In this document: one piece after another, positions 897-44,656 of the stretch
Layout: every line of letters starts with the position of its first letter
How positions within the stretch are numbered: position 1 is the first letter of the stretch
Position numbers and translations under genes: made by a program
Assembly (NCBI RefSeq): GCF_947623445.1
Contig: NC_135246.1
Span: 16,103,856 to 16,167,855 of the forward strand
Direction of reading: 5' to 3'
Source: Clavelina lepadiformis
Lineage: Eukaryota > Chordata > Ascidiacea > Aplousobranchia > Clavelinidae
DNA: 64,000 bases
Notes under the pieces: model-generated
Database searches by the model: none
Told to the model about the DNA's origin: nothing
Seen by the model: only the letters and a program-made list of their open reading frames with translations

Positions 897-3800
897 TCAG
901 GTGAGTGACGTCTCTTTCTCCCAACCTCCCGCCGTCAGAGTCGTTATGTTAAAAGTGTAACCAAAGGTTTCCATATCGACTTTGTAGATGCTCAAAATAC
1001 GCTCAATCACGTCCGGTTCAAGTTGAGAGTAATATTTCTTTATAAATAAAGCTGGATCTCTAGATTGGTTAATGACGTTTAGAGGAGATATGACGTCGGA
1101 TGAAATGTTTAGTTTATTCTCAGTGATCCATCTTGCATCTTTGAAAAATAAGATGAAACAAAAGAAAGACGAATTAGTTTTGAATTTTAACCACTTACGT
1201 TTTCAAAATGAAAAATGTACAAGATTGAAATAAATTCATTTCGACAAAATATCGTTTTATATATAGCTATAGTTTAAGTTAGTTCATGATTGTTGATTAT
1301 TTTGTCGTCACCTGTATTAAATGTTTCTAGCTTAGTGATGTAGTTGAAGGGAAATTTGCACGGGTCGCAGAGGCTCAACATGGGTTTAAAATGGGGGTCC
1401 AAGTAACCCGAACTTTTTGTGCCATAATCGGCAACATAATGGGCAAAATCGACAAACTCCATAAAATGACCATCTTCTGACCTAAAAAGAAAAAAAATTT
1501 CAACAAAAAGTACATTTTTAAATTTGACTTCTCTTTGCAATATAAGATAAGGTTAAAACCAACACAAGTAAGTTCTCACCCATTCCATTTTCCATACTTG
1601 TTTGGATAATTTAACATCGCCGGAAACCAGTTAAACCAAGCGTGGTAATAGAACTCTTTGGTGAACTTATTCGCCCAACCAGATGCCAAACGAGCCAATG
1701 GGTGACGCACGTTTATTATTCTAACAGCATTGTCATCCTTAGACATAAACAAATTTTTAGTAAAATTCCTTTCACAGGTTTTTAATTTTTCTGGACATAG
1801 ATTGTTCTAAAACCAAAGTTCAACGTGCAGAAGGCCTAACTAACGATTTTCAGTTAACAAAAAAAAAACTACAGAATTAGTGTTGAAGCATTTTGGCTGA
1901 AAAGTTTTGAACGTACAGTCATTCAATTTTATATACAGTACATATCACTTTTAAAATCAATTCAACAAAGAATTATAATCGTGCTTGAAACGAAGGAGAA
2001 AAGTAAAAAAATAGCATCAGAAGAAGTTTTCGGATTTGTTAACTGCATGCATATGGTACATTATTTGCTTCAAATTTTATGAACATGTCCATTTTGACAT
2101 CATCAGCATGTGCAAAAAAAGAAAAGTTCATTAACTTTAAATGGTCCCGATTCACAGCGGAATTTCTTATTTTTTCGTAAAAAGACCTCTATACATTTTT
2201 TTGTAAAGGGTTTCACATAAAAATGAATTTTATTTACTTCTGTACATTATAGAGACCAATATACATGCTGCCGACTCTTTTTGATGAAGTTACGTTCAAG
2301 ATTATGTTAGTTTATCACTTATTTTTCGTTTAAAACACACAGTCAAATACGCAATTCTTTGACAAAGGAATAACTGTGTACTTCGTCCATTCAAAGTTAA
2401 TTTGTTAGTCGGCTTAATAAAAACTATCGGTAACCTTTAATAGTTCTATTTTCCTCTCGCGACTAATTGCATTGAATGCTGCGATTTGACTTCTTTCAGC
2501 CTTGTCGAAAAAACCGTGATCTTCTGCCTCTTCTGGAGCACGAATCCTCCAGAAGAAATTGTTCCAGGTTTGACTTCCAGACTTCAGCACGAGACAGATC
2601 ATGGCCCGGTGCTCGTAGCTCGCCACAAAATTGCCGAATATGCCACCTGTAAAAGCGAACAGTAAAACATCTACAGTATATCCAACCTAATTTTACGTTT
2701 TAATTGCAATCTCGTAATTATACTTGTCGTAGATCCCTATCAACAATATCTTTAGTTAGTTAACTTTCTGGCAAGATTACTGAAAACTTCATCAAGTTTC
2801 TAAAATACGACGTGTGTTTTATGTCTATCATTTGGCCAATCTTCGATTACATGTAGCATATCCTAACTAAGAGGTGCAGGGTATAGACTAACTAATTAGA
2901 CATGCAAATAAACGCGTTGCACGCTGAATACGTGCGACAGGAGGGCATGTAATTCGGAAATTACAATAGATGTTTAATAACCTGTTTGCAACCCAAGAGT
3001 GCATCATATCTTCTGTATAAATGGATTTACAATAAAAATAATGCATTCTTGAAACCACATAACCATGTTAATTAATATGTATGTAACATGCATGGCGATT
3101 TTTCAATAAAGGCCTACAATATTCCAACAATACTAAACCTGTATCTCATATCACACAACAACAATTAGGGCGCATGAAATGCATCTTTGCGATTGTATAC
3201 CGGTTATGATACTGTAAAATGTCTCATGCAATTATTCAGCATTTTATTTTAGGCAGTTTTAAGACAATTAGTATCAAGTAAGATTTTCGTTGAAGTATAA
3301 ATTGAAATCATGATCTACCAGAGGTTTTGATATTTTTCCAACTTTGCTGATAATCTTTTCCATGTGCCTTGCACATCTTTGTAGCATTGGTGAGCCTGTC
3401 TTTAAACCTCTGCTCGATTTCGTGGTCATTTTTGACATCATAACTTGAAAGAGGTAAAACTGACAACCCAATTTCCTTGAAGATCTTGTTCATATACAAA
3501 CATACAACTTGATTACTTTGGGTTTTCTATTGAACTGAATGAGTTCAAATTAAAATGTCTACATCAGCTGCTTGGCTTCTGCGCCAATCAGTAACCTCGT
3601 AAACTACCACTATTAGCCTTGTAAATGTTTTTACTTATTATTTTCATCTACAAAATGACACAAATAAAATTCTGCAAATTCAAAACTTTCGACTGTTCAT
3701 CTTCCTTTTTAGACTTACCCGGTTAATTGAAGTTGATTTCTTTCTCTCTATGGTCTCGGTAAAAGGAGATAAGCCTGTATGTATTGAAGTTTTCGATTCT

Positions 3801-3919
3801 ACTTCTTTTTCCTTCGGCAGTGATTTTAAACCGACCATGAAAATGTTTGTTTGCAAAATGGCAAAGTAAAAAGCAGCAAAAAGCAGCAAGCAAGCCGTAC
3901 GCCGCTTCTTTATTCTCAT
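897..3919 (-). CDS. ST1: carbohydrate sulfotransferase, alpha subtype, intact, six exons
   Basis: Predicted Golgi type II membrane enzyme that moves sulfate from PAPS to a sugar hydroxyl; the acceptor cannot be read from sequence. Exons: 3919-3719, 3475-3319, 2646-2435, 1737-1580, 1481-1312, 1138-897, all with GT/AG borders and matching phases, giving 379 residues with no internal stop. The anchor is at about residues 8-32 (TACLLLFAAFYFAIL). The 5'-phosphosulfate motif LVLKSGSQTW is at 138-147. The 3'-phosphate motif NVRHPLARLASGW starts at 199, with Arg201, Arg206 and Ser209. CDPC is at 281-284, followed by KLETF. These match the HNK-1/chondroitin-4-O-sulfotransferase family in order and spacing. 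The start was chosen at 3919 because exon 1 then matches family length. The frame stays open upstream to 4063, so a longer N-terminus is possible. Its 5' side faces the transposon nest. Confidence 0.85.
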
Positions 3920-6345: not shown

Positions 6346-6362
6346 TAACCCTAACCTAACCA
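6343..6362. repeat. Short telomere-like repeat (CCCTAA)n
   Basis: Three imperfect CCCTAA units lie in the LINE 5' region. The paralogous place near 33820 lacks them, so this is a small local insertion or expansion. Confidence 0.4.
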
Positions 6363-7235: not shown

Positions 7236-8210
7236 TCAGGTGAGTGATGTCTCTTTCTCCCAACCTCCCGCCGTCAGAGTCGTTTTGTTAAATGTGTAAC
7301 CAAAGGTTTCCATATCGAGTTTGTAGATGCTCAAAATACGCTCAATCACATCTGGTTTAAGTTGAGAGAAATAATAATCTTTTATCAGAGCAGCCGGATC
7401 TTTTGACTTGTTAATCACGTTTACAGACGATATGACATTGGCTGAAACGTTCAGTTTACTTTCGATGATCCATCTTGCATCTTTAAAAACAACAAATTAA
7501 AATTTAAAGAAAATAAAGCCCTGTTCAAAATTTTTCATAAAACGCTTATCTCGAAATAATCTTAAAATGTGTTTTCAGAGTTGCTCTTTTAATTATATAA
7601 TTGAGTGAACAGATTAGGCTGAAATATCTAGGGGTCAGTGTACCTGTATAAAAGGTTTCTAGTCTGGTGATATAATTGAAAGGAAATTTACACGGATCGC
7701 AATGAGACAAAATCGGTTTGAAATGTTGATCCAAGTTTTCTAAGCTCTCCGTTCCGTAATCTGCCACGTACTCAGCAAAATCAACAAACTCCATGAAATA
7801 ACCATCTCTTTCCCTGTGATCAAATTTTAATTTCTCACAAAAATCCGCGGTTTGAATCGTCCGCGGGTTGAATCGTCTGGGAGTTGAATCGTCCGTGGGA
7901 TGAAACGTCCAATGTTGAATGTTCCTGGGTTGAATCGTCCGCAGGTTGAATCGTCCGGGGTTGAATCGTCCGTGGGTTGAATCGTCCGACCACCACTGGT
8001 TCCCTTTTAAATGCTATTGCTAACTTGACTTACCGTCTTCGTCTTCGTCTTCTGTTGGCGCGTTTTCTTTTGCGAAGTCGGTCGAGAACTGCCGGATACA
8101 ATCTTTCGTTTAAAATTTTTACGTAAATCACTACGTTTAAGCAGAACTATTACAGCAATCATCGAGTAAGAAACACGAAACAGAGTCGAACGCCGGTAGC
8201 TTGCTTTCAT
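7236..8210 (-). pseudogene. ST2: beta-subtype sulfotransferase remnant lacking exons 2-4
   Basis: Recognisable parts are exon 1 (8210-8034, MKASYRRSTLFRVSYS with the membrane anchor), exon 5 (7813-7644, with ERDGYFMEFVDF, CDPC, RLETF) and exon 6 (7480-7236, ending GGWEKETSLT). Exons 2 to 4, which carry both PAPS-binding motifs, are absent, and a 16-base minisatellite (7841-7990) sits where they should be. Compared with intact ST9, exon 1 has an extra A after the anchor, a deletion of about 20 bases and another small indel, so the stem region is read in a changed frame. Exon 6 has one additional Tyr codon. It cannot make an active sulfotransferase. The lost exons have close relatives in ST5. 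The gene sits head-to-head with ST3. Confidence 0.8.
7841..7990. repeat. 16-base minisatellite inside ST2
   Basis: About nine imperfect copies of a unit like GGTTGAATCGTCCGCG run in tandem with no spacers. The array occupies the place of exons 2-4 of ST2. It borders exon 5 on one side and a short piece of intron before exon 1 on the other. No similar array is in the intact paralog ST9. Confidence 0.85.
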
Positions 8211-9306: not shown

Positions 9307-11820
9307 ATGAAGCGGTTTAAGAGATTAGTTTTCGCTTGTGTTATATCGGCATTAATCTTTTTATATTTTGATGGAATCTACATCGATGAATACATTGCCG
9401 AATTCAAAACCAAACGGATTGTACTTCCAACATTGCCGTACTCTTCGCAATTGCAGCTGTTTGAGAATAATATGACCAGAAAGGTTAGTGTAGGCCTAAG
9501 CACAAGATCGTTAATCTTCTTGGAACAGTTTTACTGCTGAACGGCTTCAGTTACAGATTTCTTAGTTACTTATCAGTTACTTATTTATTGTCTTCAGATA
9601 GTTTCATCTATGCAAATAACCAAAGAAATAAATAACTGTACACAGTAGGAATAGTCAACTACATGTATGCTAGTAAGTAACTGATTACAAAACGCTTAAG
9701 TTTACCATCTTAACGTTTCGAATACATCAGCAGTAGCCCGAATAACCAATTTTACGCAGGTGTTGAACTGACTGTTGTTATAAACTGATTTGAATCAGTC
9801 AAAACATAGATATCCTATAAAACACAGGATTTTTTGTGAAAACACAGGTGTTTTATAGGATATCTATGATCAAAAAGTGTACGATTGTCGTTTTCTGGTT
9901 TGATTTTCACAGTCCAGATAAATGTTTCTTGTCAAAGGTTATTGACGCCATGAACAATGACGTAACTGTCACAAAACCTCTGCCACCTGCTGTTGTCGAA
10001 AAAAGGTTTGGAAGAAGACTAGAACAAGCAGAAAACGCCTGCATGAAGCGTGGCATTAGCTACTTAAAAAACTGGGAAATTATGAAAAAATACGGTATAA
10101 GTGGACTTTACAGTACACTATGCTAATATCATATATGTGTCATATCATATATCATTGCAGTGTATACGTCGACACTTTTCAAAGCGAAATAATCTGCTTA
10201 AAAACTATTCTGCTTTCCAATTTGTTGTTTGCAATGCGTTCAGGCAATACACCAGTTCGTTACTTTGTGGCTAGCCACTCTCATGGTGCCATGATGTGCC
10301 TTGTGCTCAAAGCCGGCAGTTCAACTTGGGATAATTTTTTTTGGAGAATTCGAGCTCCCGACGAGTCAAGGAACTCTAACTTCTGGGCAAAAGCGACGAG
10401 CAGCAACGCGGAAGCGTTTCGCGCGCTTAGTCGGGAAAAAAAGATGGAGATATTGCAGGTTAACAGTTGTTACTGAGAATGCACATTCTGTACATCTGTT
10501 GTGTTTAAGAAACTGTCGCGGCATTGTTCCGGGTATTTTAAGAAACTCTTATATTGAACCAGCGCAAAGTTAAAAGTATTTTTTCGTTTGTTTTTCGCAC
10601 AATTGGTTGTTTCCTGCGATAATGTTAATTGCAACAAGCATACAATTGTTTGACTTAAATTCAAAATTTTTCTGTAGTTTTCACAAATGAAAATGCCAAC
10701 TTGACCTTTGATAGGTAAAGATTGGTTTAAAATTAATTTATGTCTTCATAGATGAAGAAACTTTGTCAAAAACTTGTTATACAAAACTTGTACCAACACT
10801 CATGTACAGGACGAGAATGCTACTAGATTAATGAACGTTCGGCATCCTCTGGCGCGGATGATATCTGGCTGGGGAGACAAGTTCACCAAACAATTTTATT
10901 ACGACGTTTTGTTTAAGCGCTACCCTGGCATGTTGAAATATCCAAACAAGCACAAAACGTGGAAAGGCTGGTAAGGAAGCTTTTCAAGGTAAAATTTGAC
11001 GTTTGTGTCAACTGCATTGCGTTTTACCATATCTGGTCTCTTATGCAATTTTAACCAAATAGGCCAGAGGATGGTCGTTTCATGGAGTTTGCCGATTATG
11101 CCCGTTATATGGCAGACTATGGGACAAGAAGTTTACGTAACTTGGATGAACATTTTCTCCCGATGCTGAAGAGATGTGACCCGTGCTATTTTCCTTTCAA
11201 TTACATCACTAAATTAGAAACGTTTGCCACAGGTATGGCCTACATCAAACTGCAATTTAAGTTCGTACAGTGACCTTTTAGGCGTATATCGGTAAGAGGA
11301 CCACGTAGCCTATGTACCGATATCGATATAATATAGGCTCACCACTACACACGTGGTAGGAACGCAAAATGAAAAGTTGTTTGAAAAATTTGCTATTTCA
11401 CAGTATAGAATAGTTTGGAGTTTCGTTAGTTTTAGAAGTAGTATTAAATAAAACTTAAGAAATTGCCACTATTTTGTGTATGGGCATCATAATTCTTGTT
11501 CAGTATTTTGGATTAATCTTTCGCGGACTTGATAAGAGGTGAAGAAGGAATTGTCATTTATCATTCGTTCGTTTATTGCACTTGTAGATGCAGCATGGAT
11601 AGTTGATAACAAACTGAATGTCACTATTGACACCATAACCTCCCAAAACGTGTTCCGCAAGACAGAAGACCCGGCTGCTCTGATAAAGAAATATTTTTCT
11701 CAACTTGAACCGAACGTAATTGAGCGTATTTTGAGCATCTACAAAGTCGATATGGAAACCTTTGGTTACACTTTTAACATAACGACTCTGACGGCGGGAG
11801 GTTGGGGGGAAGGGACTTAG
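9307..11820 (+). CDS. ST3: carbohydrate sulfotransferase, gamma subtype, intact, six exons
   Basis: Predicted PAPS-dependent Golgi sulfotransferase. Exons: 9307-9483, 9938-10094, 10244-10458, 10810-10970, 11063-11232, 11588-11820; all borders are GT/AG, phases agree, and the product is 370 residues. The anchor is at about 7-22 (LVFACVISALIFLYF). Exon 3 holds LVLKAGSSTW at 131-140 (5'-phosphosulfate site) and exon 4 holds NVRHPLARMISGW with Arg194, Arg199 and Ser202 (3'-phosphate site). Exon 5 has CDPC at 275-278 and KLETF from 287. Exon 6 ends with TLTAGGWGEGT. Exon 3 is three bases longer than in its relatives and reads GNTPVRYF where ST6 and ST8 read GPPVRYF. Intron 1 holds a 64-base foldback insertion at 9805-9868. 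ST3 is divergent from ST2 and converges on ST4. Acceptor sugar unknown. Confidence 0.88.
9805..9868. mobile_element. Tiny foldback insertion in ST3 intron 1
   Basis: A perfect 21-base inverted repeat, starting CATAGATATCC and ending GGATATCTATG, surrounds a 22-base loop. It is flanked by TCAAAA on both sides (9799-9804 and 9870-9875). The paralogous intron of ST8 (near 27345) has a single TCAAAAA and no hairpin, so that is the empty site. A matching filled site is in ST6 (19115-19178). Confidence 0.75.
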
Positions 11821-12926: not shown

Positions 12927-15831
12927 CTATTCCACCCACCCTCCAGCTGTTAAAGTTGTCAAATTAAAACTATAACCGAAAGTCTTCAGGTCATTTTCGT
13001 ATAAACTATAAATTCTCTTCGTCACGTTGCGGTCTAATTTTGAAAAATATTCTTTGATGAGTTCGACGTAATCTTTACTTCGCTTCGAATTGACGTTTTG
13101 TGGCTTGAGCATAGCTGTACTCAGGTTCAACTTAGCTTCAATCAACCAACTTGCATCTAAAATAAAATTATCAAGTATTACTACATGATTTTAAAAGCTG
13201 AGAAGTTGCTGATTTCTCGTTCTGTTTTTATATGTTTACGGAGATCTATAGGAATTTATGGTGTCATCCATCAATTGGTTTCACCAATGTGAAGTAATAA
13301 GCATATAAATCAAAGGACAAGAACATTAGCTGAAAAAATTATTTATTATCATAAAATTTGTGATACAAACCCAATTAAATAAATTGAGAAACAATTTTTG
13401 TGTCCATGAAGTAAAGAATTTTTAAAATATGATGACCTTATAATTACACTTTCGGTGTATTAAGCTAAACATAATGAGTGATGCTATAACCTATAACAGA
13501 CTACATTCGATTTTGCAATAATTACGTTACAACATAATTAAGGGAGTTCAAACTTTTCTTTGTCACCGAAACTGCCACCTGCATCATAGGTTTCCAATTT
13601 TGTGATAAAGTTGAAAGGAAACCTGCATGGATCGCAATGAACAGTGGCCGGGTAGAAATGAGCGTCTATATTGGTCAGGTTATAACCGTGGTCGGCCAAA
13701 TAACTGGCAAAATCCACCCATTCCATAAAGTGACCTTCATGTGGTCTGTAAACAAGAAAAATCTTAGAGTAAAACACGAAACAAGATACTTAGGCCAATG
13801 ACATTTTATGTGTCATCTCCCCCACTTGTTGGGATAGTTTAAAAGTTTGGGAAAGGTCTTGAACCAGATGTTGTAAAAATACATTTTGTCAAATTTGTCG
13901 CTCCAGCCTGAAATTATTCGAGCAAACGGGTGGCGGACACCAACTAATCTCAAGCCGTTAGGATCCTGCAAAAACCATTATTCTTTTTGCTACATTTTGT
14001 CTCTGTTAATGCAAATAAAGTAAAATTTCATATCACTGCCTCCATTATGGACTGTACTTTAGCGTAGTTGACTGCTGGTTATCTATTTACTGACATAGGC
14101 CTAGTAATTACAAGCAAATTACTTTATCTACGTCTAAGCAAAGAAATTAGCAACTATCTAGCATGTGCCCTTTTTTTTGAAACATTTTTGTTACAATTGT
14201 TGTTTCAAGGAATGTTTTCCTTTGTAGTTATTATAAATGTTGTTGAAGTGTATGGTAAGGAGCCTACCAGGGTCATTCAAAAGCTCTAAGATCAGCATCG
14301 CCACCTTTGCATGTACCCAAATTCATTTGCCAAAAAATATCAAAATAAGAAACGAAGTATCAGGTAATAAGCTACTAAGTTAGTAACCAGGGAACCTTCG
14401 CCAATCTTATAGAAACGTTTGATCGACAGAGCAGGACGAAAGACGAAGCAGGGTTTTTGTTGTGACGTCATTAGTAGTTCGATCGAACCGACAAGTGTAG
14501 CCTATTCTTTCTATGCGTTACAAAAATTACGCAAAACGTTCATTGTCGTTCGAGTACTTTTTACAAAAACTTTTTTGGCCGAATTCTGTAGAATTTTCTG
14601 GAGAATAGTAACCTGTAATCAGTAACGTAAAAAACATCTTCTAAGAATTTAAGACTTTAAGTAAACGAAAAGGTAGCTTCAAAGAGCAAATATAAAGGTT
14701 AAAAATATCCATAATAATTTTTAAAAAACGAAACGTACAAAACAATGTTGTATGTTAAAAGAGATATTTGCAAGCAGGCAGGTTAAACCTCAATACTCTG
14801 CATGGCTTGTTAAAAATTATATATATTTTTACCTGCAGTATTTCCTTCTTTTTGTCTAGGCTCAGAGATTTGAAAGCATAGGCGTTGCCATGGACTGCCC
14901 TCTCCTAGAAGTTGTACTTCTCTGCTTCTTCCGGAGCCCGAAGTCTCCAGAAGAAGTCGTTCCAAGTTGAACTTCCAGCTTTGAGCACGAGACACATCAT
15001 CGCGTGGTGAGACTCACTGGCTACAAATCTATCAGTAGGAGGCCCTAAACAATACAATGTACAACACGGTGTACGTCACTACAACAGTTAAATCTGCTTC
15101 TCAGTTGCGTTGTAAAATGTTTTTTATTCTTCAATACCGTTTTCAATCACCGCTTTCCACTTTTCATTGTAGTTCACTCCACGTTGGAGACAAACGTGTT
15201 TTGCTTCATCGAGTCGGTCTTTGAATCTTTCCTCTACTGGATGTAGTGGAGGAGACTTGTTCGATTTTCCTGTCACCGTTACGGGAACTTGAACCTTTAA
15301 TAGCAAAAGTGTCAACGATAACAAACATTAAGAGTCAAATTACTGACACCTAAGTTGCTTCATTCATACGGTTAGTATTCTATACTTTGTTATAATTTGT
15401 GGTAATACGTTGTTTCTATACAAGTGAAAAAGCTCAAATTAGAACGCCTATATCAGCTGCTTAGCTTCTGTGCAAATTAATAACGACGTAAACTACCACT
15501 ATCACCCTAATAAATGCTTATGTTTATTTTTTTCGAATGCAAAATCACACAAATAGAATTCTGCAATTTCAATACATTCGACTGTTCATCTTTCTTTTTA
15601 GACTTACCCGGTTAATGGATTAATTAATTGACTTACCCGGTTAATTGATTTCTCTCTCTCTATGGTCTCGGTAGAATGAGATAAGCCTATATGAATTGAA
15701 TTTTCCAATTCTATGTTTGTTTCCTTCGGCAGTGATTTCAAACTGACGATTAAAATCTTTCTTTGAAAAATGGGAAAATAAAAAGCAGCAAGAAGCAGCA
15801 AGCAAGCCGTACACCGCTTCTTTATTCTCAT
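12927..15831 (-). pseudogene. ST4: chimeric sulfotransferase pseudogene (alpha exon 1, delta exons 2-6)
   Basis: Exons by homology: 15831-15637, 15294-15138, 15044-14833, 13965 to about 13820, 13745-13579, 13156-12927. Exon 1 with its upstream and intron-1 sequence (about 15420-15963) is alpha subtype, like ST1 and ST5. Everything downstream is delta subtype, like ST10 and ST11. Two lesions: a TAG at 14905-14907 replaces the Trp codon of the motif NFWERA in exon 3, just after the 5'-phosphosulfate site. A 14-base loss between two GAGATG repeats (near 13825) removes the end of exon 4 and its splice donor. The exon 1 donor region carries a duplicated ACTTACCCGGTTAAT block (15602-15616 and 15631-15645). 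The remaining reading frames are well kept, including CDPC and TLTAGGWVE, so the decay looks recent. Confidence 0.82.
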
Positions 15832-15963
15832 GTTTTTGCGCTTGCCGATATTCTCTGCTTGTGTAGCATGTAATGCTTCCACAATTGTGACGCCGTCGAC
15901 AACACGGAAATGAAATACAAAGGTTTTAAAGAAGGCTATTGTTTTTGCATGTGATATTTGAGT

Positions 15964-18159
15964 TTGTCCAAGTTTTCTAAGCTCTCCGTTCCGTAATCTG
16001 CCACGTACTCAGCAAAATCAACAAACTCCATGAAATAACCATCTCTTTCCCTGTGATGAAATTTTAATTTACTACAAAAGTAAGTGCCTTCCGTTTTCGG
16101 CATGTTCAAACAATTTCTGGCAAATCAATGTTTAAATAAAACCAATTTTATTGGTGTACCCTCTCCATTTGCCGTATTTGTTCGGATATCGCAACATGCC
16201 AGGATATTGCTTGAACCAAAGGTAGTAAAAGTATCGTTAGTTGAACTTGTTTCCCCAACCGGATATCATTCTTGCCAAAGGATGTCGTACGCTCATTATT
16301 CGAACAGCGTCGTCGTCCTTAAGTAAAATATCTCTTTCTAACTTTTCATTTTTAAGCAGTATTCGTCAAGGAACCGTCAATGGATTTTGTAACCTTTAAT
16401 AGTTCCATTTTCTTGTCAAGACTGAGATCATAAAAAGCTTGTCGTTGGCTTGTTTCTGCTTTTTCGTAAAAGCCGTACTTCTTTGCCTGGTCCGGAGATC
16501 TAATCCTCCAGAAGATGTTGTTCCAGGTTTGACTTCCAGCCTTCAGCACGAGGCAGATCATGGCCCTGTGGTCGTAACTCGCCACAAAATTGCCTGTAAT
16601 TCTACCTGGCAATTGAATTGGTAATGAAAAACCTCATAACAACCCTTGCTGTAAATTTTCTAACAACTGGAAATTCACTTTGACACACAATGTATAGCAC
16701 CGAGAAATGGTATTGCTACGATGCACAGTACATATGCAACAGTCGTTTTACCCGAATTTTTCAGGTTTTCCCAGTTTTGTTTATAATCTATCCCACGTCG
16801 TTCACACATCGTTACTACCTTGACTATTATTTCGTTAATTTTACGTTTTAATTGCAATCTCGTTATTATACTTGTCGTAGATCCCTATCGAAACCATCTT
16901 TAGTTGGTTAACTTTCTGGCAAGATTACTGAAAACTTCATCAAGTTTTAGAAATATGACGTGTGTATTATGTCTATCGTTTGGCCAATCGTCGATTACAT
17001 GTAGCATAGCCTAACTAAGAGGTGCAGGGTATAGGCTAACTAGTTAGACGTGGAAATAAACGCAGTTGTACGCTGAATACGTGCGAAAGGAGGGCATGTA
17101 ATTTGCAAATTACAATAGATGTTTAATAACCTGTCTCCTAAAATTAAATTTATGTGCATGTGCGTTGCAATATTATTCCTACGAGGGGTCTGGTACAGTT
17201 TTAATTGTATGGTGCACGATAACATATCTTCAGCAACCCAAGAGTGCATCATATCTTCTGTATAAATGGATTTACAATAAAAATAATGCATTCATGTAAC
17301 CACGTAACCATGTAATATGCATGCAACTTGCATGGCGGTTTTTCAATAAAGGTATACAACAATCCTACAATACTAAACCTATATCTCACATCACACAACC
17401 ACAATCAGGACGCATGAAATGCATCTTTGCGGTTGTATACCGGTTATGATACTGTAAAATGTCTCATGCAATTATTCAGCATTTTATTTTAGGCAGTATT
17501 AAGACAATTAGTATCAAGTAAGATTTTCGTTGCAGTATAAATTGAAATCATGATCTACCAGAGGTTTTGATATTTTTCCAACTTTGCTGGTAATCTTTTC
17601 CATGTGCCTTGCACATCTTTGTAGCATTGGTGAGCCTGTCTTTAAACCTCTGCTCGATTTCGTGGTCATTTTTGACATCATAACTTGAAAGAGGTAAAAC
17701 TGACAACCCAATTTCCTTGAAGATCTTGTTCATATACAAACATACAACTTGATTACTTTGGGTTTTCTATAGAACTGAATGAGTTCAAATTAAAATTTCT
17801 ACATCAGCTGCTTGGCTTCTGCACCAATCAGTAACCTCGTAAACTACCACTATTAGCCTTGTAAATGTTTTTACTTATTATTTTCATCTACAAAATGACA
17901 CAAATAAAATTCTGCAAATTCAAAACTTTCGACTGTTAATCTTCCTTTTTAGACTTACCCGGTTAATTGAAGTTGATTTCTCTCTCTTTTTGGTCTCGGT
18001 AAAAGGAGATAAGCCTATATGAATTGAATTTTTCGATTCTACTTCTTTTTCCTTCGGTAGTGATTTTAAACCGACCATGAAAATGTTTGTTTGCAAAATG
18101 GCAAAGTAAAAAGCAGCAAAAAGCAGCAGGCAAGCCGTACGCCGCTTCTTTATTCTCAT
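15964..18159 (-). pseudogene. ST5: chimeric sulfotransferase pseudogene (alpha exons 1-2, beta exons 2-5)
   Basis: Exon 1 (18159-17959) and exon 2 (17715-17559) are nearly identical to ST1, as is the first part of intron 2. At about 16815-16840 the sequence switches in mid-intron to beta type: a 5'-truncated exon 2 (VVTMCERRGIDYKQNW, donor near 16752), exon 3 (16605-16394, LVLKAGSQTW), exon 4 (16317-16160) and the start of exon 5 (16050 to about 15967). Exon 5 breaks off after ENLD and runs straight into the upstream flank of the alpha exon 1 used by ST4. Exon 6 is absent. Exon 4 has a TAA at 16237-16239 where ST9 has AAA for Lys, right after the 3'-phosphate motif. Alpha exon 2 could still splice in phase to beta exon 3, but the product would stop early. 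Confidence 0.8.
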
Positions 18160-18856: not shown

Positions 18857-19248
18857 ACTGCCAACACCTTGCTTCTAAATTTTGTTATCTTTGTTCTTGT
18901 TCGGATGATTGGTTTTCTGATCTTGTCTTTTGCTTAACTTTGAAGAAACTTTGTTTCATTTTTTCATGCTAGGTAATGTTGGGTAGTTGGTTGTCCGAGT
19001 ACGCTTAAGTTTACCATCTTAACGTTTCCAATACATCAGCAGTGGCCCGAATAACCAATTTTACGCGGGTGTTGAACGGACTGTTGTTATAAACTGATTT
19101 GAATCAGTCAAAAACATAGATATCCTATAAAACACAGGATTTTTTGTGAAAACACAGGTGTTTTATAGGATATCTATGGTCAAAAAGCGTATGATTGTCG
19201 TTTTCTGGTTTGATTTTCACAGTCCATGTAAATGTTTTTTTGTCAAAG
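18857..19248. other. Junction between the ST5 flank and the headless ST6
   Basis: Similarity to ST3 intron 1 starts abruptly near 18999 (CGCTTAAGTTTACCATC, equivalent to about 9696). Before that, 18857-18998 matches nothing else that I recognise in the window. The expected gamma exon 1 is not found here. Confidence 0.5.
19115..19178. mobile_element. Tiny foldback insertion before ST6 exon 2
   Basis: Same 21-base inverted repeat, loop and TCAAAAA flanks as the insertion in ST3 intron 1 (9805-9868). It is absent from ST8. Confidence 0.75.
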
Positions 19249-27100: not shown

Positions 27101-27430
27101 CGTGTACTGTAAAGTCCACTTATACCGTATTTTGTCATAATTTCCCAGTTTTTTAAGTAGCTAATGCCACGCTTCATGCAGGCGTTTTCTGCCTGTTCTA
27201 GTCTTCTTCCAAACCTTTTTTCGACAACAGCAGGCGGCAGAGGTTTTGTGACAGTTACGTCATTGTTCATGGCGTCAGTAACCTTTGACAAGAAACATTT
27301 ACCTGGACTGTGAAAATCAAACCAGAAAACGACAATCGTATGCTTTTTGACTGATTCAAATCAATTTATAACAACAGTCAGTTCAACACCTGCGTAAAAT
27401 TGGTTATTCGGGCCATTAGTTATTTATTCA
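24128..27430. repeat. Right arm of the large inverted repeat
   Basis: Mirror of 18999-22345. It contains ST8 exons 2-6 and their 3' flank. Beyond about 27430 ST8 continues with intron 1 and exon 1, which the left arm lacks. Confidence 0.85.
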
Positions 27431-27847
27431 ATACGTTAAGATGGTAATTTTAAGCGTTTTGTAACCAGTTACTTACTAGCATATATGAAGTGGACTATTC
27501 CTACTATGTACAGTTGTTTATTTCTTTGCTTATTTGCATAAATGAAATTATTTACCGACAATAAATAAGTAACTGATAAGTAACTAAGAAACCTGTAACT
27601 GAAGCCGTTCAGCAGTAAAAGTGTCCTAAGAAGATTATCGATCTTGTAGCCTACTTACACTTACCTTTCCGGTCATATTATTCCCAAACAGCTGCAGCTG
27701 CAATTGCGAAGAGTAGTACAATGCTTGCAGTACAATCGGTTTGGTTTTGAAATCGGCGATGTGTTCATCGATGTAGATCCCATCAAAATATACAAAGATT
27801 AAAGCCGCTATAACACAAGTGAAAACTAATCCCTTATACCGGTTCAT
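25308..27847 (-). CDS. ST8: carbohydrate sulfotransferase, gamma subtype, intact, six exons
   Basis: Predicted Golgi PAPS-dependent enzyme of 371 residues. Exons: 27847-27665, 27282-27126, 26937-26726, 26331-26171, 26078-25909, 25540-25308, with correct GT/AG borders and phases and no internal stop. Exon 1 encodes a short basic tail and the anchor (LVFTCVIAALIFVYF). Exon 3 carries LVLKAGSSTW, exon 4 NVRHPLARMISGW, exon 5 CDPC and KLETF, exon 6 TLTAGGWGEET. It differs from ST3 by a two-residue QL insertion in the stem and a three-base shorter exon 3. Intron 1 lacks the foldback insertion seen in ST3 and ST6. It is head-to-head with ST9, as ST2 is with ST3. Confidence 0.88.
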
Positions 27848-30889: not shown

Positions 30890-32863
30890 ATGAAAGCAAG
30901 CTACCAACGTTCGACTCTGTTGCGTGTTGCTTACTCGATAATTGCTGTAATAGTTCTGCTTAACGTAGTGATTTACGCGACAAATTTGAAATGGCTGCGT
31001 AAAGACTTCATACCCACTAACAAAGGATTGTACCGGCAGTTCTCGACTGAATTCTCAAAAGAAAACTCGCCAACGACAAAGACGGTAAGTCAAGTTAGCA
31101 ATAGCATTTAAAAGAGAGCCATTTAACGAAATTGGAATATTCAAATGATTTCGATTAACGCCCAACTATCAAGTGAGTAATGTAGGAACACCTCAAATAG
31201 ACCTATATAGACAGGGATAAAGTACTCGAAATGAGACGCAATAACGATAAGTAAGTCTGTATATATCATGAATTCACTAAAACTTGTCAACTGATTACCC
31301 TATTCACATTGTATTGGACCCTTTGAATATATTCAATTCGATTTCCTGTGTTTTAATAAGTGTCAATAGAGGTTAATAACATGTCAAAATGTTGCTTCGA
31401 GGTTCATTTTGTGATACCTTATATCACTTTTTTAAGCGAATCCTAAGCTCAGGCTCAAGCTTTAATTCATCACATGACGTAATCGAGAAAAGATTTGAAG
31501 AGAGACTTGTCAACGTAGTAACGATGTGTGAACGACGTGGGATAGATTATAAACAAAACTGGGAAAAGCTGAAAAATTCGGGTAAAACTACTGTTGCATA
31601 TGTAGCCTACTGTACATCGTAGTAATCCCATTTCTCGGTGCTGTTTACATTGTGTGTCAAAGTGAATTTCCAGTTTTTAGAAATTTTACACCAAGGGTTG
31701 TTATGGAGATTTTCATTACGAATTCAATTGCCAGGTAGAATTACAGGCAATTTTGTGGCGAGTTACGACCACAGGGCTATGATCTGCCTCGTGCTGAAGG
31801 CTGGAAGTCAAACCTGGAACAACATCTTCTGGAGGATTAGATCTCCGGACCAGGCAAAGAAGTACGGATTTTACGAAAAAGCAGAAACAAGCCAACGACA
31901 AGCTTTTTATGATCTCAGTCTTGACAAGAAAATGGAACTATTAAAGGTCACAAAATCCATTGACGGTTCCTTGACGGATGCTGCTTAAAAATGAAAAGTC
32001 ATAAAGAAATATTTTATTTCAGGACGACGACGCTGTTCGGATAATGAGCGTACGACATCCTTTGGCAAGAATGATATCTGGTTGGGGAAACAAGTTCAAC
32101 AAACGATACTTTTACTACCTTTGGTTCAAGCAATATCCTGGCATGTTACGATATCCCAACAAATACAGCAAATGGAGAGGGTACACCAATAAAATTGGTT
32201 TTATTTAAACGTTCATTTGCCAGAAATTGTTTGAATATGTCGAAAGCGGAAAACGCTTAGATTTGTGAAAAATTAAAATTTACTCACAGGGAAAGAGATG
32301 GTTATTTCATGGAGTTTGTTGATTTTGCTGAGTACGTGGCAGATTACGGAACGGTGAGCTTAGAAAACTTGGATCAACATTTCAAACCGATTTTGTCTCA
32401 TTGCGATCCGTGTAAATTTCCTTTCAATTTTATCACCAGACTAGAAACCTTTTATACAGGTACACTGACCCCTAGATATTTCAACCTATCTGTTCACTCA
32501 ATTATATAATTAAAAGAGCAACTCTGAAAACACATTTTAAGATTATTTCGAGATAAGCGTTTTATGAAAAATTTTGAACAGGGCTTTATTTTCTTTAAAT
32601 TTTAATTTGTTGTTTTTAAAGATGCAAGATGGATCACCGAAAATAAACTGAACGTTTCAGCCAATGTCATATCGCCTGTAAACGTGATTAACAAGTCAAA
32701 AGATCCGGCTCTTCTGATAAAAGATTATTTCTCTCAACTTAAACCAGATGTAATTGAACGTATTTTGAGCATCTACAAAGTCGATATGGAAACCTTTGGT
32801 TACACATTTAACACAACGACTTTGACGGCGGGAGGTTGGGAGAAAGAGACGTCACTCACCTGA
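30890..32863 (+). CDS. ST9: carbohydrate sulfotransferase, beta subtype, intact, six exons
   Basis: Predicted Golgi type II sulfotransferase of 373 residues. Exons: 30890-31084, 31437-31581, 31735-31946, 32023-32180, 32290-32459, 32622-32863, with GT/AG borders and consistent phases. Exon 2 is 145 bases, 12 fewer than in the other subtypes; its acceptor (TTTAAG before CGAATC) is the least certain border. The anchor is at about 10-30 (LLRVAYSIIAVIVLL). The 5'-phosphosulfate motif LVLKAGSQTW is at 132-141. The 3'-phosphate motif SVRHPLARMISGW has Arg195, Arg200 and Ser203. CDPC is at 275-278 with RLETF after it. The tail GGWEKETSLT is shared with ST1 and ST2. This is the only whole beta gene; ST2 and ST5 carry pieces of two others. 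The hAT/Tigger/LINE half-nest lies downstream. Confidence 0.87.
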
Positions 32864-33555: not shown

Positions 33556-33582
33556 CCCGATTTACTCCATTTTGTTTGCTCA

Positions 33583-37146: not shown

Positions 37147-40100
37147 CTATTCCACCCACCCTCCAGCTGTTAAAGTTGTCAAATTAAAACTATAACCGAA
37201 AGTCTTCATATCATTTTCGTATAAACTATAAATTCTCTTCGTGACGTTGCAATCTAATTTTGAAAAATATTCTTTGATGAGTTCGACGTAATCTTTACTT
37301 CGCTTCGAATTGACGTTTTGTGGCTTGAGCATAGCTGTACTCAGGTTCAACTTAGCTTCAATCAACCAACTTGCATCTAAAATAAAATTATCAAGTATTA
37401 CTACATGATTTTAAAAGCTGAGAAGTTGCTGATTTTTCTTCCTGTCTTTAAATGTTTCCGGAGGTCTAGGAAATCATGGTGTCATCCATCAATTGGTTCC
37501 ACCAATGTGAACTAATAAGCATATAAATCATGAGACAAAAATATTAACTGGAAAACCTAAATATCATAAGAGTTGTGATTTAAACACAATTAAATAAATT
37601 GAGGAACAATTTTTGTGTCCATCAAATAAAGGCTTTTTAAAAAATGATGACCATATAATTTCACTTTTGGTGTATCAAGCTAAACATATTGAACGATGAT
37701 GTAACCTATAACAGGCTACTTTCGATTTTGAGCTAATTACGTTACAACATAATTAAGCAAGTCCAAACTTTTTTATAACACCGGTCAGTTTTCTTTGTCA
37801 CCAGAACTATCACCTGTATCAAACGTTTCCAATTTTGTGATAAAATTGAAAGGAAACCTGCATGGATCACAATGAACAGTGGCCGGGTAGAAATGTGCGT
37901 CTATATTGGTCAGATTGTGACCGTGATCGGCCAAATAACTGGCAAAGTCCACCCATTCCATAAAGTGACCTTCAAGTGGTCTGTAAACAAGAAAAATCTT
38001 TAAGAAAAGCATGAAACGAGATACTTAGGCCAATGACATTTTATGTGTCATCTCACCCTCGCCATCTCCCCCACTTGTTAGGATAATTTAAAAGTTTGGG
38101 AAAGGTCTTGAACCAGATGTTGTAAAAATACATTTTGTTAAATTTGTCATTCCAGCCTGAAATTATTCGAGCAAACGGGTGGCGGACACCAACCAATCTC
38201 AAGCCGTTAGGATCCTGCAAAAAAGTTTATTCTTTTTGCTACATTTTGTCTCTGTTAATGCCAATAAAGTAAAATTTCATATCATTGCCTTCATTGCAGA
38301 CTGAACTGTAGCGTAGTTGTATTATGATAATTCTAAAAATTCGAAACCAGTTTTTATTGCAAACTTATTGCAGTTAGAAACACAACGCCGACTTGAAGTT
38401 GGTTACTTTTTGACTGCTGGGTATCCATCTAGTGACATTGGCCTAGTAATTACCAGCAAATTACTTTATCTATGTTTTACAAACAAACTAATTTTTGTTT
38501 CAAGGTATGTTTTCATTTGTAGTTACTACGGGTTCAGCACTAAAGCGAAAGCCACCTGGAAGGCCTCGTGGGGCGCCACCTACATCTCGAAGGCGCCACC
38601 TACAGGATGTAATCTTTAAAACATAAATACATCAAATGGTAACCTTTTCACTTTCAGATGAGACAATAAATGTTGTGATTGCTTATAAATTTTGTCTCTT
38701 TTTCCTAGTTTGAAATGTGGTAGGTTTTTCTGCCCCACCCTGTATAAATAACGTTGAAGTTTAAGGTAAGGCAGCCTACCAGGGTCATTCCAAAGCTGTA
38801 AGGTCAGCTTCACCTTTCATGTACCCAAATTCATCTCCCAAAGAGTATCAGAATAAGAAACGAAGTATCAGGTAAAAAGCTACTAAATTAGTAACCAGGG
38901 AACCTTTGCCAATTTTATACTGTACAGTAGAAACGTTTGACCGATAGAGCAGGTCGAAAGACGAAGCAGGGTTTTTGTAGTGACGTCATTAGTAGTTCAA
39001 TCGAATCGGCAAGTGCAGCCTATTCTTTCTATGCGTTACAATAATAGCACAGAACGTTCATGGTTTTAGTCGTTCGAGTACTTTTTACAAACAGTTTTTT
39101 GGCCGAATTCTGTAGAATTTTATGTAGAATAATAACCTGTAATCAGTGACGTTAAAAGCATCTTTTGGGTAATCGAAAAGATAGCTTCAAAGAGCAAATA
39201 TAATGGTTTTAAATTATCCATAAGAATTTTTATAAAACTAAACGTACAAAAAATGCTATATCTTAATCGAGATATTTCAAAGCAGGCAGATTAAACCTCA
39301 ATACTCTGCATGGCTTGTTAAAAATGATTGACATTTTTACCTGCAATATTTCTATCTTTTTGTCTCGGCTCAGAGATTTGAAAGCATAAGCGTTGCCATG
39401 GACTGCCCTCTCCCAGAAGTTGTACTTCTCTGCTTCTTCCGGAGCCCGAAGTCTCCAGAAGAAGTCGTTCCAGGTTGAACTTCCAGCTTTGAGCACGAGA
39501 CACATCATCGCGTGGTGAGACTCACTGGCGACAAACCCACCGGTAGGGAGCCCTAAGCATAAGAATCTTCAATTGTACAACATATTATTGTATTATTAAA
39601 AGTTGCTGTTTCGGGTGCACTAAAAATGTGTTTTAATTCTTCAATACCGTTTTCCATCACCGCTTTCCACTTTTCATTGTAGTTCACTCCACGTTGTAGA
39701 CAAGCGTGTTTTGCCTCATCAAGCCGGTCTTTGAATCTTTCCTCTACTGGATGTAGTAGAGGAGACTTTGTCGATTTTCCTGTCACCGTTACAGGAACTT
39801 GAACCTTTGATATCAAGAATATAAACAATTACTGAAACGTAGGTTACTTTATACATACAGTTAGTATTCTATACTTTGTAATTTGTAGTAACTCAATTCA
39901 TTTTATGTCAACTCAACTTCGGTCAGTTTAACGCCGTCCAGTGCAACCCTTGAAATCACAACATCAGTCAATTCTAATTGTTGGTTGAATATAACCATAT
40001 TTGGGAACGTTGAGTTAATTGAATAAGCTACCTATAGAGTTGACTGGATTGAGTAGACATGGAAATGTTTGGTATCAAACAAATGCCCTGCACGTGCTGA

Positions 40101-40304
40101 TTTTACACTGACCTCTTTCGTAACATCATCTGAAGTTGCGCCGAACAGATTAGTTGTAAGAGCCTGTGACGTTTCTTCCTGGTTAGCCTGGTATTTGACA
40201 CCGTCACGACTTAGCCACAAGTAAATCTTTCCAAGGTAAATGTAAGCAGGTATGACCGTTGTCAAAAGAAAAATGAAGCCCAGATGCAATGATTTAATAG
40301 TCAT
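37147..40304 (-). CDS. ST10: carbohydrate sulfotransferase, delta subtype, intact, six exons
   Basis: Predicted Golgi PAPS-dependent enzyme of 371 residues. Exons: 40304-40113, 39804-39648, 39552-39341, 38214-38057, 37980-37814, 37376-37147; borders and phases agree and no stop interrupts. The anchor is at about 8-28 (GFIFLLTTVIPAYIYLG). LVLKAGSSTW is at 135-144, GVRHPFARIISGW carries Arg198, Arg203 and Ser206, and CDPC is at 277-280 with KLETF behind it. The C-terminus is TLTAGGWVE. Intron 3 is 1.1 kb and holds a 214-base insertion at 38529-38742 that is absent from ST4. ST10 and ST11 are tandem, same strand, and share upstream DNA. Confidence 0.88.
38529..38742. mobile_element. Small insertion in ST10 intron 3, possibly at a TA target
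   Basis: The intron matches ST4 intron 3 on both sides, but ST10 has 214 extra bases starting CGGGTTCAGC and ending CCCACCCTG, each bordered by TA. Read from the right, the end is CAGGGTGGGGCAG; pairing with the left end is weak. It may be a truncated mariner-like non-autonomous element. Confidence 0.45.
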
Positions 40305-42362: not shown

Positions 42363-44656
42363 CTATTCCACCCACCCTCCAGCTTTTAAAGTTGTCAAAT
42401 TAAAACTATAACCGAAAGTCTTCATGTCATTTTCGTATAAACTATAAATTCTTTTCGTCACGTTACGGTCTAATTTTGAAAAATATTCTTTGATGAGTTC
42501 GACGTAATCTTTTCTTCGCTTCGAATTGACGTTTTGTGGCTTGAGCATGGCTGTACTCAGGTTCAACTTAGCTTCAACCAACCAACTTGCATCTAAAATA
42601 AATTACAAAATAATAGCTTACTTATAAAATGCACTTATTCCTTGCATTTGCAAACCAGACTGAGTAAGCATGGACTCCGGATTATATTACAGCATAATAA
42701 AGGTCAAACTTTTTAACACGTGTAAGGCTTTATCGTCAACAAAAGTGAAGAGTCACCTGTAGCAAAAGTTTCCAATTTTGTGATAAAATTGAAAGGAAAC
42801 TTGCATGGATCGCAATGAACAGTGGCCGGGTAGAAATGTGCGTCTATATTGGTCAGGTTATGACCGTGATCGGCCAAATAACTGGCAAAGTCCACCCATT
42901 CCATAAAATGACCTTCACGTGGTCTGTATGAAACAAGAAAAATCTTTAAGAAAAGCATGAAACGAGATACTTAGGCCAATGACATTTTATGTGTCATCTC
43001 ACCCTCGCCATCTCCCCCACTTGTTGGGATAATTTAAAAGTTTGGGAAAGGTCTTGAACCAGATGTTGTAAAAATACATTTTGTCAAACTTGTCGCTCCA
43101 GCCTGAAATTATTCGAGCAAACGGGTGGCGGACACCAACTAATCTCAAGCCGTTAGGATCCTGCAAAAAGATCGGTCGCGTTTCTTGCATTCTACCATGT
43201 TTGCATCATGGCATTCAAGGATCCAAATATTAATCATTACTGCCCTTCGTTCCAAAATTGTTCATCACAACCTACTTTATTGTTTTTACGGTATGAGCTT
43301 TAAGGTAACCAATTGCTGATGGGACCTAAGTTTTAAATGCGAAAGAAGAAATTAAAAACTTGTAGGGTCAGCTGCATACCTCTAATTTAAAAATAAAAGA
43401 TATTTTTACCTGCAATATTTCTATCTTTTTGTCTCGGCTCAGAGATTTGAAAGCATAGGCGTTGCCATGGACTGCCCTCTCCCAGAAGTTGTACTTTTCC
43501 GCTTCTTCCGGAGCCCGAAGTCTCCAGAAGAAGTCGTTCCAAGTTGAACTTCCAGCTTTGAGCACGAGACACATCATCGCGTGGTGAGATTCACTGGCGA
43601 CAAACCCACCGGTAGGGGGCCCTAAGCATAAAAATCTTCAATTGTACAACATATTATTGTATTCGTAAAAGTTGCTGTTTCTGATGCACTAAAAATGTGT
43701 TTTTATTCTTCAATACCGTTTTCTATCACCGCTTTCCACTTTTCATTGTAGTTCACTCCACGTTGGAGACAAACGTGTTTTGCCTCATCAAGCCGGTCTT
43801 TGAATCTTTCCTCTACTGGATGTAGTTGAACAGACTTGGTCGATTTTCCTGTCACCGTTACGGGAACTTGAACCTTAGATATCAAGAATATGAACAATAA
43901 CAAGCATTAAAAAGTCTAAATTGTAGGCTATTTGCCCACTTGATACAATTGTTAGCCTATAGGTGTTTATGTTGATTGTGTAATTGTTTGTGTGATTTGT
44001 ATAATTGTTATTTTATACTTTGTAGTCTGTGGTAGCTCAGTTCATAATACGTTATCTCAAATTCGGTCAGCTAAACGCCGCCCAGTGCAACCCTTGACGT
44101 CACAGCATCAATTAATTCTTACTGCTGGTTGAATATAACCATCGTATTTGACCAAGTTGTGCCAAATGAGTCCGCTACTGAGTTCACCTGATTTAAAGGT
44201 GTCCTTTAACTGAAGACGCACTAAGTTATTTTAATAAAAGAAAGCGCTTTTGATTGTAAAAAGGCGCTTGAAATCTTGCTAACATATTATCCTAAATGAT
44301 AATATGTGCAATAATATAACTTGCACACTAAATGCTTTAGAAAACAGAAGCCTTATTCTCTTATTCGAGTAAACACGGTACCTTGTAGATCTGGGTTTAA
44401 GTGGCATGGAAGATTTTCACAACGAGTATAGATGATGTCCTGCACGTGCAGTTTTTATACTGACCTCATTCGTAACATCATTTGAAGTTGCGCGGGTTGA
44501 GGTGTAGGTTAGAGCTTGTAACGCTTCTTTCAGAATGGAATGGATTTTTACATTGTCATGGTTGTGACGGAAGTAAATCTTTCCAATGTAAACGTAAGCA
44601 GGTATGATTGTTACCAGAAGAAACATGAAGCTCAAACGAACTTTTTTAACTGTCAT
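42363..44656 (-). CDS. ST11: carbohydrate sulfotransferase, delta subtype, intact, six exons
   Basis: Predicted Golgi sulfotransferase of 371 residues, tandem sister of ST10 with the same exon lengths. Exons: 44656-44465, 43873-43717, 43621-43410, 43160-43003, 42923-42757, 42592-42363; all borders and phases agree and there is no stop. The anchor is at about 7-28 (LSFMFLLVTIIPAYVYIG). Motifs: LVLKAGSSTW in exon 3, GVRHPFARIISGW in exon 4, CDPC and KLETF in exon 5. Exon 6 ends TLKAGGWVE, with Lys where every other copy has Thr. Intron 3 is only about 250 bases, against 867 in ST4 and 1.1 kb in ST10. Its exon 5/intron 5/exon 6 block is the closest relative of ST7. Confidence 0.88.

What the first reader, a model, noticed from the sequence alone, without database searches (positions are those of the whole stretch)
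897..44656. Eleven-copy local cluster of Golgi carbohydrate sulfotransferases with four diverged subtypes
Seen: six whole genes and five partial ones within 44 kb, all with the two PAPS-site motifs (K-x-G-S-x-T-W and V-R-H-P-x-A-R-x-x-S-G-W) and a CDPC/KLETF block where exons remain. Known: these blocks mark the HNK-1/chondroitin-4-O-sulfotransferase family, which vertebrates have as a few dispersed genes. Inferred: a tunicate-lineage expansion, perhaps tied to lineage-specific sulfated glycans of tunic, blood cells or egg coat. The subtypes differ in stem and acceptor-side regions, while PAPS sites stay fixed.
Basis: partly seen in the sequence, partly recalled or inferred. Interest (0 to 1): 0.75.

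Follow-up and report, generated by a model that had tools for sequence, protein, structure and literature searches.

The report
Sea squirt sulfotransferase gene cluster
A sea squirt chromosome carries a local array of about a dozen whole and broken copies of one enzyme type that adds sulfate to sugars; it is a real, locally multiplied branch of a known enzyme family whose sugar targets are unknown.

Summary
The window is very likely Clavelina lepadiformis chromosome 7. It has six whole six-exon genes (897-3919, 9307-11820, 25308-27847, 30890-32863, 37147-40304, 42363-44656) and five partial or broken copies. All six whole products match Pfam Sulfotransfer_2 (PF03567; E 1.1e-28 to 1.8e-24), have an N-terminal membrane segment and fixed PAPS motifs, and show low catalytic dN/dS.

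Corrections: 9 of 11 copies, not all, carry both PAPS motifs. The array runs past the window (a twelfth copy 7.5-8.6 kb to the left), and a second array of nine copies lies about 2.3 Mb away. Divergence is strongest in the membrane/stem part; no acceptor-side focus was seen. In a tree of sampled members of this genome the cluster is one group (89/88, not starred). No vertebrate or other tunicate sequences were available, so the decisive tree was not run.

Tunicate duplications in this family are already in print (Ciona). I file it as a new member of a known kind: a tandem, rearranging array of HNK-1/C4ST-like sulfotransferases, acceptor unknown. Boldest open reading: they sulfate Clavelina's tunic galactan.

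The parts
897..3919 (-). Gene A (subtype c), whole, 6 exons: 3719-3919, 3319-3475, 2435-2646, 1580-1737, 1312-1481, 897-1138; 379 aa. The exon 1/2 junction is uncertain (two in-phase acceptors, first exon base 3475 or 3484).
   Evidence: PF03567 E 1.8e-24
7236..8210 (-). Copy B (subtype d), partial: first exon 8010-8210 and exons 5-6 only; a 16-base minisatellite at 7844-7988 lies between them
9307..11820 (+). Gene C (subtype a), whole: 9307-9489, 9938-10094, 10244-10458, 10810-10970, 11063-11232, 11588-11820; 372 aa
   Evidence: PF03567 E 1.2e-27
12930..15294 (-). Copy D (subtype b), exons 2-6, stop codon inside exon 3 and damaged end of exon 4; no subtype-b first exon found
15646..15831 (-). 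Extra copy of a subtype-c first exon, not followed by other subtype-c exons
15894..18159 (-). Mosaic broken copy (Dp/D2): subtype-c exons 1 and 2 (17974-18159, 17557-17706), then subtype-d exon 2 fragment, exon 3, exon 4 with a stop codon, truncated exon 5
19195..21160 (+). Copy E (subtype a), exons 2-6 open, no first exon found
22789..23521 (+). Copy F, subtype-b exons 5-6 preceded by a scrap of exon 6 closest to subtype d (22789-22878)
25308..27847 (-). Gene G (subtype a), whole: 27659-27847, 27126-27282, 26726-26937, 26171-26331, 25909-26078, 25308-25540; 373 aa; forms an inverted repeat with copy E
   Evidence: PF03567 E 1.1e-28
30890..32863 (+). Gene H (subtype d), whole: 30890-31093, 31437-31581, 31735-31946, 32023-32180, 32290-32459, 32622-32863; 376 aa
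   Evidence: PF03567 E 1.6e-26
37147..40304 (-). Gene I (subtype b), whole: 40113-40304, 39648-39804, 39341-39552, 38057-38214, 37814-37980, 37147-37376; 371 aa
   Evidence: PF03567 E 2.7e-26
42363..44656 (-). Gene J (subtype b), whole: 44465-44656, 43717-43873, 43410-43621, 43003-43160, 42757-42923, 42363-42592; 371 aa
   Evidence: PF03567 E 7.5e-27

Best explanation
A tandem array, produced by repeated local duplication, inversion and unequal exchange, of genes for type II membrane carbohydrate O-sulfotransferases of the Sulfotransfer_2 superfamily (the HNK-1/chondroitin 4-O-sulfotransferase kind). Shown by computation: family, exon structure, N-terminal hydrophobic segment, conserved donor-site motifs, low catalytic dN/dS, copy number and relatedness. 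Inferred: each whole enzyme sits in the Golgi and moves sulfate from PAPS to a hydroxyl of a sugar on a secreted glycan; the lysine of K-x-G-S-x-T-W and the R and S of V-R-H-P...S-G-W bind the donor; the subtypes (45-60% identical to one another over the whole protein) serve different acceptors, tissues or doses. The acceptor is unknown; galactose/GalNAc-type units of tunic galactan or of dermatan/chondroitin chains are the likeliest classes.
For: PF03567 in 6 of 6 whole products, E 1.1e-28 to 1.8e-24, profile positions 3 to 251-252 of 252. Six exons with the same intron phases 0,1,0,2,1 in all six whole genes, GT-AG introns, no internal stops. Hydrophobic 19-aa segment within residues 6-29 with positive net charge before it in six of six. 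Catalytic dN/dS 0.21 (C/G, Fisher p 2.6e-5), 0.11 (I/J, 1.9e-8), 0.20 (A/H, 4.3e-20). Profile-profile match to other PF03567 genes of this genome, probability 99.0, E 3.6e-18. One group in the tree of sampled members. Duplication traces: close copies align over gene spans, introns included, at 87-96%, in direct and inverted orientation.
Against: No sequence match to a solved structure that looks related, no NCBIfam match of note, so active-site geometry was not checked. No activity, localisation, expression or transcript evidence. Identity to other PF03567 genes of this genome is only 22-32% over the C-terminal part, so a changed reaction is not excluded. Cluster monophyly is not starred (89/88, 92/92). 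Five of eleven copies are partial or broken, and pairs with a broken partner also give low ratios (I/D 0.15, I/F 0.15, H/Dp 0.04), so a low pairwise dN/dS does not by itself show that both partners work now.
Confidence: 0.85

Rival explanations
1. Mostly a graveyard: one or two working genes, the rest decaying duplicates kept by chance, with no functional diversification.
For: Five of eleven copies are truncated or carry stops. Close pairs within a subtype are near-identical in the catalytic part (C/G 95.3%, I/J 96.4%), which fits dosage or redundancy. Low dN/dS is also seen against broken partners.
Against: Four subtypes at 56-75% catalytic identity all stay open, with low catalytic dN/dS between A and H (0.20); C/G and I/J catalytic parts also depart from neutrality.
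Confidence: 0.25
2. Part of the copy number is an assembly artefact (alleles placed as neighbours), especially the inverted pair E/G.
For: Inverted arms 20024-21567 / 24901-26463 are 97-98% alike, in a range that allelic copies of an ascidian could reach (recalled, not measured here).
Against: No N in the window, so no scaffold gap inside it; E lacks a first exon while G has one; the subtypes are far too different to be alleles. The genome note reports removal of 9 haplotypic duplications and QV 67.4 (PMC10884593, passages).
Confidence: 0.08
3. The enzymes belong to another PAPS-using branch (heparan/uronyl 2-O-sulfotransferase-like) rather than to the HNK-1/C4ST branch.
For: PF03567 is broad; it also covers 2-O-sulfotransferases (recalled). 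No vertebrate tree could be built.
Against: They share a CxPC block and a KxET block with most other PF03567 stretches that I translated from this genome (CxPC in 11 of 14, KxET in 13 of 14) and align to five of them at hhalign probability 99.0; that these blocks are typical of CHST8-14 is recalled.
Confidence: 0.1

Closest known systems
HNK-1 / chondroitin-dermatan 4-O / GalNAc 4-O sulfotransferases (CHST8-14)
   Same: Sulfotransfer_2 family (PF03567 found here; its assignment to CHST8-14 recalled), N-terminal membrane segment, 5' PAPS lysine motif, 3' PAPS R-x-P...S motif, CxPC and KxET blocks (recalled for CHST8-14)
   Different: 3' motif is RHP followed by SGW, where CHST9, 10 and 12 have RDP and the fly proteins RHP (PMC5050403, passages); introns run through the catalytic part; clustered copies; acceptor unknown
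Ciona C4ST-like genes (eight, four of them proposed tunicate duplications; Tetsukawa 2010 as reported in PMC3127831, passages)
   Same: Same superfamily by description; tunicate-lineage duplication already inferred
   Different: Whether the Clavelina cluster descends from the same duplications was not tested; no Ciona sequence was available
Tunicate-only sulfotransferase orthogroups ENOG502CNPV and ENOG502CXMB (PMC8704543, passages)
   Same: Unknown proteins with sulfotransferase domains found in every tunicate compared there
   Different: Identity with this family not tested
Lingula anatina carbohydrate sulfotransferase expansion, 30 copies (PMC4595640, passage)
   Same: Lineage-specific expansion of carbohydrate sulfotransferases
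   Different: Different phylum; the CHST branch is not stated in the passage seen
Second array on Clavelina chromosome 7 (C7:18436938-18657588)
   Same: Nine copies with exon 3, five of them with exons 5 and 6 too; same motifs in most; nearest relatives in the tree (86/99, 72/99)
   Different: 40-56% identical per exon; the four copies put in the tree are nearly identical to each other; 2.3 Mb away

Membership tests
Sulfotransfer_2 superfamily (PF03567) | Profile match above the curated cut-off over the whole domain | tested here: met
   6 of 6 whole products, 87.6-101.4 bits against a cut-off of 22
HNK-1/C4ST-type (CHST8-14) | 5' PAPS motif with lysine and 3' PAPS motif with R-x-P and a serine eight residues after the R | tested here: met
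   K136, R196, S204 of gene C invariant in six whole genes; spacing 60 and 8, close to HNK-1ST K128/R189/S197 (those numbers recalled; not found by the search)
HNK-1/C4ST-type (CHST8-14) | CxPC ... KxET block | tested here: met
   10 of 11 window copies, with R for K in two; the status of the block as a family mark is recalled
HNK-1/C4ST-type (CHST8-14) | Type II membrane protein with N-terminal signal anchor | tested here: met
   mean hydropathy 1.84-2.51 over 19 residues within the first 29 residues, positive charge before it, six of six; a prediction only
HNK-1/C4ST-type (CHST8-14) | Groups with vertebrate CHST8-14 in a rooted tree | not testable with these tools
   no vertebrate or other tunicate genome collection; no related PDB chain
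HNK-1/C4ST-type (CHST8-14) | Transfers sulfate to a hydroxyl of a sugar on glycans | not testable with these tools
   needs an enzyme assay
Cytosolic SULT / CHST1-7 type (PF00685, assignment recalled) | Match to PF00685 | tested here: not met
   only PF03567 at E <= 0.001 in 6 of 6
Local lineage expansion | Copies form one group against other members in the genome | tested here: inconclusive
   12 rows are one side of a branch, 89/88 and 92/92 without two long rows; leaning yes, but not starred, and only a sample of the genome's PF03567 stretches was in the tree

The most novel reading that the evidence does not exclude
The two chromosome 7 arrays are the sulfotransferases, not assigned in any paper passage I saw, that decorate the tunic's sulfated galactan (a sulfated galactan is reported from Clavelina sp.), with subtypes setting different sulfation positions or patterns; rapid stem divergence and copy turnover would then be how tunic glycan chemistry diverges between ascidian lineages.
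Probability: 0.15. Interest if true: 0.6.

Novelty: new member of a known kind. Interest (0 to 1): 0.3.

Why it matters
Ascidians make unusual sulfated polysaccharides (galactans in the tunic, dermatan sulfates whose sulfate position differs between orders; PMC8747265 and PMC3127831, passages). A compact set of related enzymes, with several whole subtypes, gives concrete candidates for a bench test of which enzyme makes which pattern. It also shows local turnover (mosaic copies, inverted repeats, a second array of near-identical copies) in a glycan-modifying family.

Tried and rejected
Tunicate check by the GH6 family (PF01341) gave no match, nor did it ring in the controls, and the tool warns this does not show absence; the species rests on contig lengths instead. 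PDB gave rows only at E 0.68-1 for the window family (an oxygenase and chlorite dismutases, taken as chance) and none for another PF03567 gene. NCBIfam gave one weak row (E 0.051). Bacterial and archaeal genomes: 45 pattern matches, none confirmed, so no sign there of a prokaryote source. Positive selection on an acceptor side: not seen; catalytic dN/dS is low and exon-level invariance even. The I/J stem ratio of 0.72 does not differ from neutrality (p 0.26). First splice models had wrong exon 1/2/3 joins (one- to eight-base exons in A, I, J); they were replaced. Pfam, NCBIfam, PDB, genome searches and the hydropathy test used the first models, which differ from the final ones only near the exon 1/2/3 joins. 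The model of copy K and the C55 relative are rough; a different first exon for K (L009:4973-5200) is as likely.
Full report
Where it is. The window is G000:C7:16103856-16167855. Contig lengths C1 28,783,666, C2 26,529,800, C3 25,734,561, C4 25,070,715, C5 24,617,235, C6 20,771,506, C7 20,448,514, C8 19,509,797 and C9 15,725,681 agree to within about 0.01 Mb with the nine chromosomes of Clavelina lepadiformis kaClaLepa1 (28.79, 26.54, 25.74, 25.07, 24.62, 20.77, 20.45, 19.51, 15.73 Mb; PMC10884593, passages). The totals differ slightly (209.06 Mb in 95 contigs here, 210.1 Mb in 102 scaffolds in the paper), so I call the species very likely rather than proven. A GH6 test for a tunicate gave nothing either way.

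What is there. tblastn with exon peptides places exons of one family between 900 and 44656; outside, the best row has E 0.095. Six copies have all six exons; final models have no internal stop, GT-AG introns and the same intron phases 0,1,0,2,1. Products are 371-379 aa. The exon 1/2 junction of gene A is uncertain, and no transcripts were available to check any model. Five copies are partial: B (first exon, exons 5-6), D (exons 2-6 with a stop in exon 3), a mosaic Dp/D2 (subtype-c exons 1-2 followed by subtype-d exons 2-5, with a stop in exon 4), E (exons 2-6, no exon 1 found) and F (exons 5-6).

Family. Pfam gives PF03567 Sulfotransfer_2 for 6 of 6 whole products, 87.6-101.4 bits against a cut-off of 22, and no other family at E <= 0.001. 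K-x-G-S-x-T-W and V-R-H-P-x-A-R-x-x-S-G-W are in 9 of 11 copies, C-D-P-C with (K/R)-L-E-T-(F/Y) in 10 of 11. All six have a hydrophobic segment within residues 6-29. A profile of the six matches a profile of five other PF03567 genes of this genome with probability 99.0 and E 3.6e-18, from just before the 3' PAPS motif to near the C-terminus. Of 14 other PF03567 stretches translated, 11 have CxPC (the two C4 genes have CSVC, C2_5018 has CNLC) and 13 have KxET (not C8_3762). That these blocks are typical of CHST8-14 is recalled. A paper on the nematode member states that CHST9, 10 and 12 have RDP in the 3' PAPS site while fly proteins have RHP (PMC5050403, passages); the window genes have RHP.

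Selection and subtypes. Between subtypes, catalytic identity is 55.6-74.6% and stem identity 16.4-29.7%; within subtypes a (C/G) and b (I/J) catalytic identity is 95.3 and 96.4%, stem identity 85.5 and 70.0%. Invariant columns: 114 of 258 catalytic, 11 of 129 membrane/stem. Catalytic dN/dS is 0.21 (C/G), 0.11 (I/J) and 0.20 (A/H), each different from neutrality; stem ratios are 0.43 (p 0.038), 0.72 (p 0.26) and 0.31 (p 1.2e-4). Against this: pairs with a partial or broken partner are also low (I/D 0.15, J/D 0.26, I/F 0.15, J/F 0.18, H/Dp 0.04, E/G 0.40, C/E 0.41; A/D2 0.34 is not different from neutrality, H/B has too few changes). So the ratios show that the family was under constraint, not that each whole gene works now.

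How the array grew. Copies are DNA duplicates with introns; summed blastn pieces over gene spans give C/G 90.9% over 2494 bases, E/G 95.5% over 1998, I/J 91.7% over 1512, D/I 87.2% over 2347, A with Dp/D2 93.1% over 1443, and the same broken copy with H 93.8% over 869. The last two show a mosaic with a switch near 16.8 kb. E and G form an inverted repeat with 97-98% arms around F. LINE-like fragments lie in inverted orientation at about 4.8-6.3 kb and 33.8-36.9 kb: 35240-35980 matches reverse transcriptase PF00078, the frame at 5422-6081 matches no Pfam family and is linked to the right copy by DNA arms of 88-93%. A further reverse transcriptase piece lies left of the window (L009:9387-9926, PF00078). 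That such repeats helped the rearrangement is inference.

Beyond the window. A twelfth copy (K) has exons 3-6 at C7:16095268-16096384. A second array at C7:18436938-18657588 has nine copies with exon 3, five of them with exons 5 and 6 (the tool calls its counts lower bounds). K-x-G-S-x-T-W is in 9 of 9 of them, the full 3' motif in 8 of 9. One relative in a single open frame of 319 aa (C1:24288671-24289588, 30-31% identity) and one on an unplaced contig (C55) also exist. PF03567 gives 89 exon-level matches in the genome, one of them in the window, with groups near C2:5.0, C3:22.18 and C4:8.02 Mb.

Tree. With 28 rows, cluster 1 (12 rows, K included) is one side of a branch (89/88), joined with the second array (86/99); these 16 plus C55 and C1:24288 are split from the ten others by 100/100. 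Without two long rows: cluster 1 92/92, with the second array 72/99. The cluster branch is not starred in either, C55 and C1:24288 are long branches whose place is unsure, and only a sample of the PF03567 stretches was used. I had no vertebrate, Ciona or other animal genome to search, so the decisive tree is still to be made.

Novelty. Tunicate duplications in this family are in print: eight Ciona proteins close to CS/DS 4-O-sulfotransferases, four of them proposed to stem from tunicate duplications (Tetsukawa 2010 as told in PMC3127831, passages). Two sulfotransferase orthogroups are tunicate-only and shared by all tunicates compared (PMC8704543, passages). Lingula has 30 carbohydrate sulfotransferase copies (PMC4595640, passage). 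My searches for 'sulfotransferase'+'Clavelina' (2 papers), 'carbohydrate sulfotransferase'+'tunicate'+'Ciona' (5), 'sulfotransferase'+'ascidian'+'tandem'+'expansion' (6, 5 listed), 'carbohydrate sulfotransferase'+'tandem'+'gene family expansion' (7) and a five-term search (54, 20 listed) showed no title or abstract start about this cluster. Apart from the passages cited I did not read these papers. So the array seems undescribed in that library, but it is of a known kind.

Function. Best guess: transfer of sulfate from PAPS to secreted glycans in the Golgi. [quoted passage not shown] is listed in a table of PMC8747265 (citing Pavao 1989; passages). Dermatan sulfation at GalNAc C4 or C6 differs between the two ascidian orders tested, Stolidobranchia and Phlebobranchia (PMC3127831, passages); Clavelina belongs to a third order, Aplousobranchia (PMC10884593). 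Linking the cluster to either glycan is inference.

Noticed in passing
C7:18436938-18657588 (L014-L022): Second array of nine related copies about 2.3 Mb from the window; the four copies put in the tree are nearly identical, others are truncated or carry a stop; c2_3 and c2_4 gave identical gene models 23 kb apart.
   Followed up: partly
L023:3669-4628 (C1:24288671-24289588): Relative in one open frame of 319 aa without the introns of the window genes, PF03567 E 7.6e-27; could be a retrocopy or an old unsplit member.
   Followed up: partly
L029 (C55:45123-49998): Distant relative on a 56-kb unplaced contig; rough model only; origin of the contig not checked (the genome note's photograph shows the specimen on Ciona).
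   Followed up: no
window 4810-6312 (-) and 33752-36897 (+); L009:8969-9997: LINE-like fragments; reverse transcriptase PF00078 at 35240-35980 and L009:9387-9926.
   Followed up: partly
window 57181-64000 and L011:2-745: Homeobox gene to the right of the array: 63372-63557 matches PF00046 at E 4.7e-15 on its own; the piece at 63816-63908 alone gave no match; other exons are guesses.
   Followed up: partly
window 15646-15831 and L009:8003-8335: Extra copies of the subtype-c first exon away from subtype-c catalytic exons; the second could be the first exon of copy K.
   Followed up: partly
C2:5.005-5.019 Mb, C3:22.171-22.195 Mb, C4:8.019-8.021 Mb: Further groups of PF03567 genes, most with VRxP and CxPC blocks; the superfamily is widely multiplied in this genome.
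   Followed up: partly
L011:7759-8055: LIM domain exon (PF00412, E 8e-7) right of the window.
   Followed up: no
window 7844-7988: 16-base minisatellite (TCCGCGGGTTGAATCG) inside the broken copy B.
   Followed up: no
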